Assembly: GCF_005938105.1 (NCBI RefSeq)
Contig: NZ_VCPE01000024.1
Span: 1-54,237 of the forward strand
Direction of reading: 5' to 3'
Source: Brucella haematophila
GTDB lineage: Bacteria; Pseudomonadota; Alphaproteobacteria; Rhizobiales; Rhizobiaceae
DNA: 54,237 nucleotides
Each line of letters starts with the position of its first letter. Within the stretch, counting starts at the first letter, position 1. The notes under the pieces were generated by a model that was not told the DNA's origin, did no database searches, and saw nothing but the letters and a program-made list of their open reading frames with translations. Below are positions 14,493-48,987 of the stretch, one piece after another. Made by a program: the position numbers and the translations under genes.

Positions 14493-15365
14493 TTATGCGG
14501 CCTGCTGTGTCGGCGCGCTCGCCATGGTTTCCTGCTCGACCACGTCGATGGTCGGGCGGTCGTAAGCGGAGATGGTCTTGCGTCCGTATTCCACGGCGAT
14601 CTGCGGCAGCGAACCGTTCATATAGGCAAGCAGCGTCTGCTTCACGACGACATAAAGACGGTTCTTTTTCTCGCGGGTCGATTTGATCTTGGTCGCGATG
14701 GGACCGACAACGCCATAGGAAAAGAAGATACCGGCGAAGGTGCCGACAAGGGCCGCACCAATCAGGTGGCCGAGAACTTCCGGCGACTGGTCCAGCGCGC
14801 CCATGGCCTTGATAACGCCGAGAACGGCGGCAACGATGCCAAGCGCTGGCAGGGCTTCCGAGATCGTGACCATGGCCTGATAAGGCTTCAGCTTGTCGCG
14901 GGCGATGGTGTGAATTTCCTCGTCCATCAGCGCTTCGATTTCGTGCGAGCGCACATTACCGACAATGATGAGGCGGCAATAATCGCAGATGAAGTGGGTG
15001 AGGTCTTCGTTTTTCAGAACGCTCGGATAGGCCAGAAAAATCGGCGATTCCTTGGGATTGTCGATATGGACTTCCACTTCATTGCGCGACTTGGCGCGCA
15101 ATTCCCGCATCAGGCTGTAGAGCAGGCCGAGAACATCCAGATAATCGCGCTGCTTGGGCACGGCGTTGGTGAACGCTTCCATGCAGGCGCGGCCGGTATC
15201 CTTCACAAGCGAAAACGGGTTGGCGACGAAGAACGTGCCGAGCGCCGCGCCCAGAATGATGACAAACTCCCATGGCTGGATGAGCACGCTGACATGTCCG
15301 CCCATGGCGATAAAGCCGCCCAGCATACAGCCCAGTGTGATGGCGAGACCAATGATAATGCCCAA
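14493..15365 (-). CDS. motA: Flagellar motor stator protein MotA
   Basis: 290 residues from a TTG start at 15365 (read [20 protein letters not shown]), with GGGAG nine bases upstream. Homologous MotA proteins begin exactly there, and the longer open frame to 15476 would add a 37-residue cysteine/arginine-rich leader. Four membrane helices are visible; [17 protein letters not shown] contains the conserved prolines at the proton channel. With MotB it forms the inner-membrane stator. First gene of the minus arm, divergent from the DUF1217 gene across about 158 bases that must hold both promoters. Confidence 0.95.
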
Positions 15366-15523
15366 AGCCCGAGACTCCCGCAGAATAGTTCTTTGAATCG
15401 AACATAGGCAGCGCGGCTTGCGCGAAACTTGCCGATGATCGCCCGAGGGCCACGGAGTTTCATCAGCTTCGGACAAGCTTGATCTCGCATAAAGGATGGA
15501 ACTATCAGCAGGGGGTCATGCAC

Positions 15524-17047: not shown

Positions 17048-18402
17048 CGCCAGATTTACCGCTCGCGCGGCTTGCCGCCTTTGCCCGTCAACAGGCCGTG
17101 GAACCGAAGCCCTTATCCGGCATCGGCGGCACGGTCAGCGACGTGTCACGCTCGGCGATAGCCGTGCGCGGGCTGTCGCGCGATGCGCGGCTTGGCGATG
17201 CGGTGGCGATAAGGGCTGCGGGCGGCACCAGTCTGGCGGAAATCATCCGCGTTGCGGATACGCAGGTTCTCGTAAAGCCTTTCGATGACCGGATCATTCC
17301 CTCATTGGGGGCAGCGGTTTTCGAGGAAGGTCAGCTTAGCATCCGCCCCGCGCTCGAATGGCGCGGGCGGGTGATCAACGCGCTGGGGCAGCCGATTGAC
17401 GGCAGGGGTGCGCTTCTGCCCGGTCCGCGTCCGATGGCGTCTGAAAATCTGGCGCCGGCTGCTCTGCGCCGGGGGCGTGTGGATCGCGGGCTTCGCACCG
17501 GCGTCGATGTGATCGACATTTTCACGCCGCTTTGCTTCGGACAGCGTATCGGCATTTTTGCCGGTTCCGGCGTCGGAAAATCCACGCTGCTGGCCATGAT
17601 GACGCGTGCTGCCGATTTCGACACGGTGGTGCTGGCGCTGACCGGCGAGCGCGGACGCGAAGTGCGCGAGATGCTGGAAGAAACCATGGCCGGCCATCTC
17701 GACAAGACCATCACCGTCGTCGCGACAGGCGATGAAAGCCCGATGATGCGCCGTCTCGCACCCAACACGGCGACGGCCATTGCGGAATATTTCCGCGATC
17801 TTGGCCAGAATGTCCTGCTGATCGTCGATTCCGTCACACGCTTTGCCCATGCGGCGCGCGAGGTGGCAATTGCGGCGGAAGAGCCGCCGGTTTCGCGCGG
17901 TTATCCGCCGAGTGTGTTCAGCCAGCTGCCACGCCTTCTGGAACGTGCCGGGCCTGGGAGCGCCGATACAGGCGGCAGCATTACCGGCATCTATTCGGTG
18001 CTCGTCGATGGCGACGATCATAATGATCCGGTATCCGACACCATTCGCGGCACGCTGGACGGCCATATCGTGCTCGACCGTACGATTGCGGCGCTGGGGC
18101 GCTTTCCGGCGGTCGATGTACCGGGTTCGGTTTCGCGTCTTGCCAAGCACAACTGGACGGCCGAACAGCGCAAGCTCGTCAGCCAGCTTCGCAGCATGGT
18201 GGCCCGCTTCGAGGAAACACGCGATCTGCGCGCCATTGGCGCGTATCAGAAGGGACATGACGGGATCCTCGATCAGGCGGTGGATCTCGTTCCGCGCATC
18301 TACGATGCCTTGCAGCAATCGCCCGAGACACCGCGTTCAGACGATCCCTATCAGAAACTCGCCGCCGCGTTGCGCGGGGAAAAACAGGCATCCAATCCAT
18401 GA
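17044..18402 (+). CDS. fliI: Flagellar export ATPase FliI
   Basis: 452 residues, F1-beta-like. Walker A AGSGVGKS at 174-181 and Walker B VLLIVD at about 257-262 are intact, as is the GERGREVREM motif. It energises unfolding and delivery of export substrates, regulated by FliH and FliJ-type proteins encoded elsewhere in this window (28804 and 44243). Starts within the flgF stop and ends overlapping the next gene. Confidence 0.97.
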   Translation: MTPDLPLARLAAFARQQAVEPKPLSGIGGTVSDVSRSAIAVRGLSRDARLGDAVAIRAAGGTSLAEIIRVADTQVLVKPFDDRIIPSLGAAVFEEGQLSIRPALEWRGRVINALGQPIDGRGALLPGPRPMASENLAPAALRRGRVDRGLRTGVDVIDIFTPLCFGQRIGIFAGSGVGKSTLLAMMTRAADFDTVVLALTGERGREVREMLEETMAGHLDKTITVVATGDESPMMRRLAPNTATAIAEYFRDLGQNVLLIVDSVTRFAHAAREVAIAAEEPPVSRGYPPSVFSQLPRLLERAGPGSADTGGSITGIYSVLVDGDDHNDPVSDTIRGTLDGHIVLDRTIAALGRFPAVDVPGSVSRLAKHNWTAEQRKLVSQLRSMVARFEETRDLRAIGAYQKGHDGILDQAVDLVPRIYDALQQSPETPRSDDPYQKLAAALRGEKQASNP

Positions 18403-19013
18403 TGACGGGCAACAAGAACCGACGCAAAAACGCCGAAGAAAAGATTTTGGCCGATCTGGAAGCGGAAGTGGAATCCGTCGCCGCGCAAGAGGGCGGCAAG
18501 AGACCGCATAGCAAGGTCGATCGCTATCTCAAGATTGCGGCGGTCACGCTGGCTGCCGGTTGCGCCATGCTGCCTTTCATCACCTATCTCCAGCGCATCG
18601 AGCTTGCGCCAGCCGAAAAGGCGGAGCGCAAGATCATCGATCCGCTGGACCGTTCGGAACAGAAGACGGTGCGCCGCTTTCCGTCCTTTCGCCCCTCGGA
18701 TCGTGTTGCCCCCAATGCGGATATCGACAACACCCTGACCGGCTCGGTCATGTCCAACGGCAAGGGTCTGCCGGGGACAGGTGCGGGCAATGGCGACGAA
18801 GGCGGTGGTGACGGACAGGCTTTCCCGAAGCCGGTTTTCGCGCTGCGCGAAGTCGTGGGTGGCATGGCGATGATCGAGGATACATCCGGCTACTGGTTCG
18901 TGGAAAAGGGATCGCTGCTGCCGGATGGCAGCCGCCTTGTTTCCATCGGTCAGGGCTCCGGAACCTGGCAATTGACCACGTCGTCGGGCGACGTGATTGA
19001 AATGCGGAGGTAG
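18399..19013 (+). CDS. Hypothetical bitopic membrane protein between fliI and flgB
   Basis: 204 residues; not a family I can name. A lysine/glutamate-rich cytoplasmic N-terminus (about 1-45) precedes one membrane helix (IAAVTLAAGCAMLPFITYL). Next comes a basic stretch, then a glycine/aspartate-rich linker (GTGAGNGDEGGGDG), and a compact C-terminal domain from about 140 (FALREVVGGMAMIEDTSGYW). The arrangement suggests a periplasmic domain on a flexible tether. Rhizobia carry an unknown gene at the same place. Its stop codon (TAG at 19011-19013) lies inside the first unit of the octamer repeat array, so the C-terminus may have been set by the repeat. Confidence 0.85.
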   Translation: MMTGNKNRRKNAEEKILADLEAEVESVAAQEGGKRPHSKVDRYLKIAAVTLAAGCAMLPFITYLQRIELAPAEKAERKIIDPLDRSEQKTVRRFPSFRPSDRVAPNADIDNTLTGSVMSNGKGLPGTGAGNGDEGGGDGQAFPKPVFALREVVGGMAMIEDTSGYWFVEKGSLLPDGSRLVSIGQGSGTWQLTTSSGDVIEMRR

Positions 19014-19153
19014 GGGAGTAGGGGAATAAGGGAATAGGGGAGTATGTTTTGGTTGCGGACGACCGCAGCGACCGTAATCTCCTACTGCCCTACTGCCCTA
19101 CTGCCCTACTGCCCTACTGCCCTACTGCCCTACTGCCTTATTCCCCTACTCCC
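19010..19153. repeat. Inverted octamer tandem arrays (Brucella HOOF-print-type VNTR)
   Basis: The left array (19010-19044) holds four degenerate copies of GTAGGGGA plus three bases. The right array (19082-19137) holds seven perfect copies of CTACTGCC, followed by TTATTCCC and CTACTCCC. The reverse complement of CTACTGCC is GGCAGTAG, a rotation of AGGGCAGT, the octamer of Brucella HOOF-print VNTR loci. The two arrays are opposed around a 37-base spacer with its own small hairpin (TGCGG/CCGCA), so the transcript could form a long slipped stem just upstream of flgB. Confidence 0.92.
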
Positions 19154-19220
19154 TTAACCCCCGCAAGCTTGACGCAAGTTCCGCCCCGTAAATTAACGAA
19201 CGGTAAAGGCGGGAAACTCC

Positions 19221-19601
19221 ATGAGCTCCATTCATCTTTTCGATCTGGCCGCAAGGCAAGTGCAGTGGCTGTCGGTTCGGCAGGCGACTGTCGCTGGCAA
19301 TGTCGCCAATGCGAACACGCCGGATTTCAAGGCGCGCGACGTTCAGCCCTTCGCCGATGTGCTGGACAAGACGCAGCTCACCATGGCGGCGACCAGTCCG
19401 CAGCATCTCGAAGCCGAATCAAACGGCATCGCGGGCGCACGCCTGCGCCCCGACGACATCACCGAGGAAACCCATTCGGGAAATACCGTCGATGTCGAAC
19501 AGGAAATGATGAAGGCAGGCGAGATTTCCCGCGAATATTCGCTCAACACCAGCATCGTCAAAGCGTTCCATCGCATGATGCTGTCAGTCGCGAAGGGATA
19601 A
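19221..19601 (+). CDS. flgB: Flagellar proximal rod protein FlgB
   Basis: 126 residues. N-terminal GNVANANTPDFKARDVQPF is the rod-protein signature and the C-terminal helix NTSIVKAFHRMMLSVAKG matches FlgB. A purine-rich GGCGGGAAA precedes the ATG. It follows the octamer repeat by about 65 bases; a repeat-dependent effect on its expression is possible. Followed at once by flgC and fliE. Confidence 0.95.
   Translation: MSSIHLFDLAARQVQWLSVRQATVAGNVANANTPDFKARDVQPFADVLDKTQLTMAATSPQHLEAESNGIAGARLRPDDITEETHSGNTVDVEQEMMKAGEISREYSLNTSIVKAFHRMMLSVAKG

Positions 19602-48095: not shown

Positions 48096-48987
<892 letters not shown>

What the first reader, a model, noticed from the sequence alone, without database searches (positions are those of the whole stretch)
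19010..19153. HOOF-print-type octamer arrays in opposed orientation directly before flgB
Seven perfect CTACTGCC copies (a rotation of the Brucella VNTR octamer AGGGCAGT, complement strand) face four degenerate GTAGGGGA copies across 37 bases. The array is inside the transcribed flagellar operon, encodes the TAG stop of the upstream gene and ends about 65 bases before flgB. Copy-number change would alter a long RNA stem in the middle of the rod operon, a possible phase-variable control of motility. I know of no description of an octamer locus in this place.
Basis: partly seen in the sequence, partly recalled or inferred. Interest (0 to 1): 0.78.

Follow-up and report, generated by a model that had tools for sequence, protein, structure and literature searches.

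The report
Dispersed octamer-armed hairpin before flgB
The two facing octamer arrays before the flagellar gene flgB are the arms of one copy of a scattered palindromic repeat, the kind that carries the Brucella typing octamers, and the same arms enclose a small four-helix-bundle protein gene related to 23S rRNA intervening sequences, a link I did not find described.

Summary
In detail: four degenerate and seven perfect octamers face each other at 19011-19156. The arrays are the arms of one palindrome; at least 23 such elements lie in this genome. Units fit TARGGSAR, as do the Brucella MLVA octamers I saw in print, and the core shares 18 nt with the Bruce09/TR8 primer, so it is Bru-RS-like. Octamer number differs from the nearest relative (right arm 9 against 6 units); other relatives have another core here, or nothing. 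A nearly invariant 21-nt block lies between element and flgB in 19 of 19 rows, with or without the element, so flgB probably has its own promoter; motility phase variation is unsupported. Unexpectedly, this genome and 12 of 34 congeners carry one PF05635 four-helix-bundle gene, and 13 of 13 copies sit between the same octamer arms. Those 13 genomes are octamer-rich, against 1 of 22 without the gene; independent events are few. In the wider family 106 of 120 such loci lie between opposed, mostly 7- or 8-nt, arrays. I propose a repeat family tied to this protein, like REP/RAYT in logic; action of the protein is inferred.

The parts
18399..19013 (+). upstream flagellar-cluster gene (204 aa, unnamed); its TAG stop is the TAG of the first octamer
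19011..19042 (+). left arm: 4 octamers of the type TARGGSAR (G-rich on the + strand)
19043..19084 (+). core TATGTTTTGGTTGCGG...; its first 13 nt with the 5 nt before them equal the first 18 nt of the published Bruce09/TR8 primer (compared by eye)
19085..19156 (-). right arm: 9 octamers of the type TARGGSAR on the - strand, including the seven perfect CTACTGCC as read on +; 24 of 44 arms in this genome have exactly 4 units
19162..19182 (+). nearly invariant block CGCAAGCTTGACGCAAGTTCC between element and flgB (contains an 11-nt direct repeat); candidate flgB promoter or regulator site, present with and without the element (function inferred)
   Evidence: (19 of 19 rows, one base different in one row), position; one search finds one other exact match to its core pattern in the window, 15417-15431 (-)
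19221..19601 (+). flgB (126 aa)

Best explanation
The feature is one non-coding member of a dispersed palindromic repeat family (Bru-RS-like) whose two arms are tandem octamers TARGGSAR and whose middle is variable. Shown: at least 23 members in this genome; in the 21 with both arms the arms always face each other in the same way; four units is the commonest arm, so this right arm of nine looks expanded; outer edges lie on or close to stop codons; the same arms enclose a single-copy gene for a PF05635 (23S rRNA intervening-sequence, Avd-like) four-helix-bundle protein in this genome and 12 relatives. Inferred: the small elements are non-autonomous relatives of that gene-bearing element and depend on its protein for spread or upkeep; when transcribed they form a long hairpin that is a likely RNase III substrate or 3'-end hairpin, as the rRNA intervening sequences are; at this site the hairpin follows the upstream gene while flgB starts from its own conserved block; octamer number drifts by slippage with little effect on flgB.
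For: Family and anatomy. Unit and core match to Brucella octamer loci: (table passage of PMC11434918; passages and section 3 of PMC1513380). Bru-RS as dispersed palindromes: passages of PMC2267715 and PMC10800456. Unit number and core change at this site. Stop-codon edges: 27 of 43 outer edges have the stop of an ORF of at least 150 codons within -8..+16 nt, against 30 of 733 control TAR sites. Gene-bearing element; 13 of 13 such genes in the genus lie between octamer arms. Co-occurrence: 13 of 13 against 1 of 22 with 50 or more di-octamers, Fisher 9.5e-9, not corrected for kinship; in the family 25 of 26 genomes with an octamer-armed gene have ten or more, against 16 of 271 (p 1.7e-24). Opposed arms above all 100 shuffles at 106 of 120 PF05635 loci, best period 7 in 65 and 8 in 37 of these. 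Arm unit and protein tree: 36 octamer rows need 3 changes (shuffled mean 31), 11 TGAATGG rows need 1. Genomes with TAGGCAG- or TGAATGG-armed genes hold arrays of the same unit. Hairpin. RNase III cutting of rRNA intervening sequences: passages of PMC4990558.
Against: G028 has 112 di-octamers and no PF05635 gene. In the family G063, G131 and G315 have 20-28 and no PF05635 match, and G041, G083, G257, G281 and G291 have 26-56 with no octamer-armed copy among those read. Kinship: only 3 independent pairs on supported branches (4 on all), all concordant, sign test p 0.25. Other arm labels cluster weakly on the protein tree: GCGAATA 7 changes for 8 rows (62 of 500 shuffles as low), TAGGCAG 5 for 7, TGAGTAG 3 for 4; 43 of 118 rows fitted no listed unit. 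14 of 120 loci had no arms above the shuffles. G192, G226, G179 and G045 hold TAGGCAR arrays and G187 and G285 TGAATRG arrays without such a gene copy among those read; counts include the gene copy's own arms, which make up at least 4 of the 5 in G281. PMC4990558 concludes that the Coxiella protein is probably not made in the cell, against a trans-acting role there. The window element has no gene; no target-site duplication was established; no transcription data. Bru-RS sequences were not at hand.
Confidence: 0.68

Rival explanations
1. Phase-variable control of motility: gain and loss of octamers changes an RNA stem in the rod operon and switches flgB expression.
For: Octamers of a type known to be hypervariable in Brucella typing (passages); 9 against 6 right-arm units in the nearest relative; strong predicted stem, whose pairing register differs between the two alleles.
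Against: Hairpin energy hardly changes between the two alleles (-70.9 against -67.5 kcal/mol); the same kind of repeat lies at at least 22 other places outside this window; 6 of 21 named relatives have no octamer at the site and keep flgB with the same block.
Confidence: 0.08
2. An ordinary MITE of an insertion sequence such as IS711 (which inserts at YTAR with TA duplication; passages of PMC3163539 and PMC2266754), with octamer arms as terminal repeats; the four-helix-bundle gene merely hitch-hikes in one copy.
For: Palindromic, dispersed, mostly beside gene ends; TA in each unit; many gene-bearing copies sit after the same gene end (by eye), as expected of one old capture.
Against: Octamer-armed gene copies occur at more than one kind of site (18 rows at one, 18 elsewhere by a rough motif call) yet nearly group by protein; other arm units enclose relatives of the same gene; octamer abundance tracks the gene. 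No transposase search was done.
Confidence: 0.22
3. Selected bidirectional 3'-end hairpins: the palindromes are kept because they end or protect transcripts of neighbouring genes; mobility is incidental.
For: Edges hug stop codons, often on both sides; at one gene pair the relative G021 has a GC-rich hairpin followed by T-rich sequence (by eye) where this genome has an octamer palindrome (L298).
Against: Patchy presence among relatives at the flgB site and in the family (62 of 297 genomes); tolerance alone would also leave insertions beside stop codons.
Confidence: 0.3

Closest known systems
Bru-RS1 / Bru-RS2 palindromic repeats of Brucella (Halling and Bricker 1994, not read; described in passages of PMC10800456, PMC2266754, PMC2267715)
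   Same: Dispersed, palindromic, intergenic, about 100 bp (members with 4+4 units here are 76-127 bp), many copies; core shared with a HOOF locus primer.
   Different: Here in a genome whose named relatives are mostly Ochrobactrum or environmental Brucella; right arm expanded; cores very variable. Bru-RS sequences were not at hand, so membership by alignment is not proven.
HOOF-Print / MLVA octamer loci (Bruce04, 07, 09, 16, 18, 30 seen in print)
   Same: The four unit strings printed in PMC11434918 (three distinct units) are rotations of TARGGSAR; variable copy number.
   Different: Those are typing loci in Brucella; this one lies before flgB in another lineage, and within-species variation is not shown.
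23S rRNA intervening sequences with an S23/IVP gene (for example Coxiella, PMC4990558 passages)
   Same: Palindromic element around a PF05635-type gene; the Coxiella one has tandem heptamers of variable number near its 5' end, at an RNase III cut.
   Different: The elements here lie between protein genes; no rRNA match in 20 of 20 loci tested; the window member has no gene.
REP repeats with a single-copy RAYT gene (recalled)
   Same: Many small palindromes plus one gene copy enclosed by the same palindrome.
   Different: The protein is a PF05635 four-helix bundle, not a Y1 transposase; no cutting enzyme is known.
Avd accessory protein of diversity-generating retroelements (PMC10053308 passages)
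   Same: PF05635 resembles Avd, which is essential to retrohoming.
   Different: No reverse transcriptase was searched for in these elements.

Membership tests
Bru-RS palindromic repeat | palindrome of about 103-106 bp | tested here: met
   39-nt inverted arms at 85%; the 8 members with 4+4 units span 76-127 bp; this one spans 146 bp because of its right arm
Bru-RS palindromic repeat | dispersed copies in one genome | tested here: met
   at least 23 elements
Bru-RS palindromic repeat | sequence identity to Bru-RS1/2 | tested here: inconclusive
   only indirect: 18 nt shared with the Bruce09/TR8 primer; Bru-RS sequences not held
Bru-RS palindromic repeat | preferred landing site of IS711 | not tested
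   reported in passages of PMC2266754 and PMC3163539; not examined here
HOOF-type octamer VNTR | tandem octamer AGGGCAGT | tested here: met
   seven perfect copies of its complement in rotation
HOOF-type octamer VNTR | copy number varies among isolates of one species | tested here: inconclusive
   9 against 6 right-arm units in a relative at 96-98% flank identity; no isolates of one species available
23S rRNA intervening sequence | lies in 23S rRNA | tested here: not met
   window element lies between protein genes; gene-bearing loci gave no Rfam hit in 20 of 20
23S rRNA intervening sequence | excised by RNase III | not testable with these tools
   only predicted hairpins
MITE | target-site duplication | tested here: inconclusive
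   sites compared show occupied, other-core and element-free states but no clean single-insertion junction
REP/RAYT | Y1 transposase in the gene-bearing copy | tested here: not met
   only PF05635 in Pfam and four-helix-bundle or hypothetical-protein models in NCBIfam
phase-variable contingency locus | expression changes with repeat number | not testable with these tools
   no expression data

The most novel reading that the evidence does not exclude
PF05635 four-helix-bundle proteins, known from 23S rRNA intervening sequences and related to the retrohoming factor Avd, are the trans-acting partners of a large class of bacterial palindromic repeats with tandem 7- or 8-nt arms, with at least some protein lineages having their own arm unit. 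The Brucella typing octamers are the worn or expanded arms of non-autonomous members, and where the gene is lost the arrays fade.
Probability: 0.38. Interest if true: 0.85.

Novelty: new variant of a known kind. Interest (0 to 1): 0.67.

Why it matters
HOOF and MLVA octamers are widely used to type Brucella, yet no passage I read says what spreads them. The data here give one frame for Bru-RS, the octamers and gene-bearing intervening-sequence-like elements, and make an open question (what S23/IVP four-helix-bundle proteins do) testable: does the protein bind its own arm unit, and do arrays move or decay without it? For the finding as given it removes a tempting but unsupported claim of motility phase variation.

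Tried and rejected
Rejected: coding use of the octamers (an 8-nt unit starting TAR gives an in-frame stop within three units); a 23S rRNA place for the gene-bearing elements (Rfam, no match in 20 of 20 loci); a decayed PF05635 gene in G028 (protein search gave only E 0.9). A comparison with element-free sites was tried at three own-genome sites; rows too weakly placed by the script were dropped: 8 of 14 at the first (L287, L290-L293, L296, L297, L299), 11 of 14 at the second (L287, L290-L299), 8 of 14 at the third (L300, L304-L308, L310, L313), probably from orientation or distance. The flagellar motif search gave 3 matches with one mismatch allowed against 1.14 expected, so it is weak.

Literature: ten searches. 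I saw listings for all of them; of nine papers I saw passages (PMC2267715, PMC2266754, PMC10800456, PMC11434918, PMC1183211, PMC7589603, PMC3163539, PMC10053308, PMC4990558), of PMC2743711 passages too, and of PMC1513380 passages and section 3. No listed paper was seen to join Bru-RS or HOOF octamers with PF05635; only one search put such terms together (three papers, none with Bru-RS), and one search found 0 papers with both Ochrobactrum and Bru-RS. The library lacks most subscription papers. Bricker 2003 (PMC183870) is not held; Halling and Bricker 1994 is known to me only through papers that cite it.

Limits: the list is cut, so 23 elements is a lower bound; two of them (L145, L153) show one arm by my threshold. 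One search left out L258 and L264 (short flanks). One search left out L189, L247, L258, L269, and L158 as a duplicate of L170. Some fragmentary or weak PF05635 matches (for example in G058, G162, G165, parts of G106 and G187) were not fetched. Shuffles keep base composition only.

Full report
What is there. The window has a left array of four octamers (19011-19042) and a right array of nine octamers on the other strand (19085-19156), seven of which read CTACTGCC on the + strand. All units fit TARGGSAR, that is TA(A/G)GG(G/C)A(A/G). The arms pair: 39 nt at 85%, and the RNA folds to -70.9 kcal/mol, z -6.1. The upstream 204-aa gene ends on the TAG of the first octamer, and flgB begins 64 nt after the right arm.

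It is one of many. A search of the own genome with the element gave 58 matches, and the pattern of two tandem units occurs 147 times against 0 for the reversed control. After reading 20 stretches plus the window I count at least 23 elements, 21 with both arms and two with one arm by my threshold. In all 21 the G-rich arm comes first on the top strand. Of 44 arms 24 have exactly four units, so the window's right arm of nine looks expanded. The 8 members with four units in both arms span 76-127 bp. Inner ends often read TATGTT and AACATA; the rest of the core differs from copy to copy.

Relation to Brucella octamers. The MLVA unit strings that I saw printed (AGGGCAGT, GAATAGGG, TAAGGGAG, AGTAAGGG; table passage of PMC11434918; three distinct units) are rotations of TARGGSAR. 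The Bruce09/TR8 primer (same passage, and PMC1513380) shares 18 nt with the window's arm-core junction. [quoted passage not shown] So the element is Bru-RS-like; the Bru-RS sequences themselves were not available for alignment.

The site in relatives. Of 21 named flgB loci (L061-L081; Brucella, Ochrobactrum, Falsochrobactrum and two records named only Rhizobiales), nine have paired arms at this place (L061-L064, L068, L069, L071-L073), three have only single octamer-like units (L075, L077, L081), six have none (L065-L067, L070, L074, L078), and three have an unlike flank (L076, L079, L080). Unit numbers (left, right): window 4, 9; L061 4, 6; L062-L064 4, 4; L068 3, 8; L069 7, 5; L071 6, 6; L072 4, 2; L073 4 and 3, 2. 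L061, the nearest, is at 96% identity upstream and 98% downstream, so unit number differs between close relatives, though variation within a species is not shown. By eye, L062-L064 and L072 have another core between similar arms, and L069 and L071 a third, which may be native spacer. At a second own-genome site relatives also differ in core (L288 and L294). In L074, without the element, the upstream gene already ends in TAG at the matching place.

Why control of flgB by the array is unlikely. Between element and flgB lies CGCAAGCTTGACGCAAGTTCC (19162-19182), with one base different in one of 19 rows, with or without the element. I infer a flgB promoter or regulator site; a flagellar regulator such as FtcR or Rem is a recalled candidate and was not tested. 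The L061 allele, with three units fewer in the right arm, has nearly the same hairpin energy (-67.5 against -70.9 kcal/mol), but its left arm pairs with the inner instead of the outer right octamers, so an effect of unit number on the fold is not excluded.

Position rule. Of 43 outer edges in this genome, 27 have the stop of an ORF of at least 150 codons within -8 to +16 nt, against 30 of 733 control TAR sites; with 200 codons 24 of 43 against 21 of 694. ORFs were called mechanically. At one gene pair array-free G021 has, by eye, a GC-rich hairpin followed by T-rich sequence where this genome has the palindrome (L298).

The unexpected partner. One own-genome element (L158) has 391 bp between its arms holding a 120-aa ORF that matches PF05635 (23S_rRNA_IVP, E 1.9e-36) and NCBIfam four-helix-bundle models, with a solved relative, 2gsc (E 2.3e-25). 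In the genus 13 of 35 genomes, the own one included, have this gene, one copy each, and 13 of 13 copies lie between TARGGSAR arms. These 13 genomes have 68-147 di-octamers; of the 22 without the gene one has 112 (G028) and the rest 0-26 (Fisher 9.5e-9, not corrected for kinship). On a tree of 29 genomes with flgB, 3 independent pairs on supported branches (4 on all) agree; G034, G002 and G019 lack the gene inside clades that have it and hold 16, 5 and 3. Three pairs cannot reach significance (p 0.25). G028 could not be placed on that tree, as no flgB was found in it.

In the wider family (coded f1), 62 of 297 genomes hold di-octamers and 93 of 297 a PF05635 gene. Of 122 distinct PF05635 loci read, 38 have TARGGSAR arms on both sides. 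Of 26 genomes with such a copy, 26 hold di-octamers and 25 hold ten or more, against 16 of 271 others (p 1.7e-24). Most other copies also lie between opposed arrays of other units, such as TAGGCAG, TGAATGG, GCGAATA or TCGGCAG; 49 of 118 stand before a nuoD-like start by a motif call (gene name from recall). Over 120 loci with enough flank, 106 have opposed arms scoring above all 100 shuffles, best period 7 in 65 and 8 in 37 of these; 14 do not. On a protein tree the octamer label needs 3 changes for 36 rows (shuffled mean 31) and TGAATGG 1 for 11, but GCGAATA needs 7 for 8 and TAGGCAG 5 for 7, and 43 of 118 rows fitted no listed unit. In 20 genomes that I chose, TAGGCAR arrays occur in 5 of 5 with a TAGGCAG-armed gene and 4 of 15 others, and TGAATRG arrays in 8 of 8 with a TGAATGG-armed gene and 2 of 12 others. 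These counts include the gene copy's own arms; in G281 at least 4 of its 5 TGAATRG matches are those, while in G242 seven places are listed and one is the gene copy.

Meaning. PMC4990558 (passages) reports that the Coxiella 23S intervening sequence is bordered by complementary sequences around the same kind of gene, is cut by RNase III, and has tandem heptamers of variable number near its 5' end, at the cut; it also concludes that the protein is probably not made there. PMC10053308 (passages) says PF05635 resembles Avd. I therefore read the octamer palindromes as relatives of a gene-bearing, intervening-sequence-like element outside rRNA. That the protein acts on the repeats is inference. The exceptions (G028, and eight family genomes with 20 or more di-octamers but no octamer-armed gene among those read) mean that arrays can exist without it, perhaps after loss. 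Ten searches of the held library showed me no paper that makes this link, but few of them paired the terms directly, and this does not prove it unpublished.

Verdict. The element is ordinary as a member of its family, but the family's link to the four-helix-bundle gene is of real interest.

Noticed in passing
L158:1577-2023 (own genome C34): Single PF05635 four-helix-bundle gene enclosed by the same octamer arms, between a glutamine-synthetase-like and an oxidoreductase-like ORF (names from recall).
   Followed up: yes
L174-L282, many loci: PF05635 genes between opposed 7-nt arrays, often just before a nuoD-like start, with the first unit on or beside the stop of the preceding gene.
   Followed up: partly
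L153:1600-1770 (own genome C12): A second dispersed repeat family of about 150 bp (many hits to query 518-666) lies inside or beside an octamer element of which only one arm was found.
   Followed up: no
L073:1650-1900: In Brucella oryzae a reversed ORF resembling a CopG-type antitoxin (by eye) stands upstream of the octamer element before flgB; G007, G008, G012, G019 and G029 have about 0.6-0.8 kb of extra DNA between the two matched parts there.
   Followed up: no
L298 (G021) against the first element of L151: Terminator-like hairpin (by eye) at a gene pair where the own genome has an octamer palindrome.
   Followed up: partly
window 48128-48159: Perfect hexamer repeat TGCTCG, 5.3 copies.
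   Followed up: no
window 15417-15431 (-): Exact match to the direct-repeat pattern of the flgB upstream block, near the start of the ORF at 14493-15476 (-).
   Followed up: no
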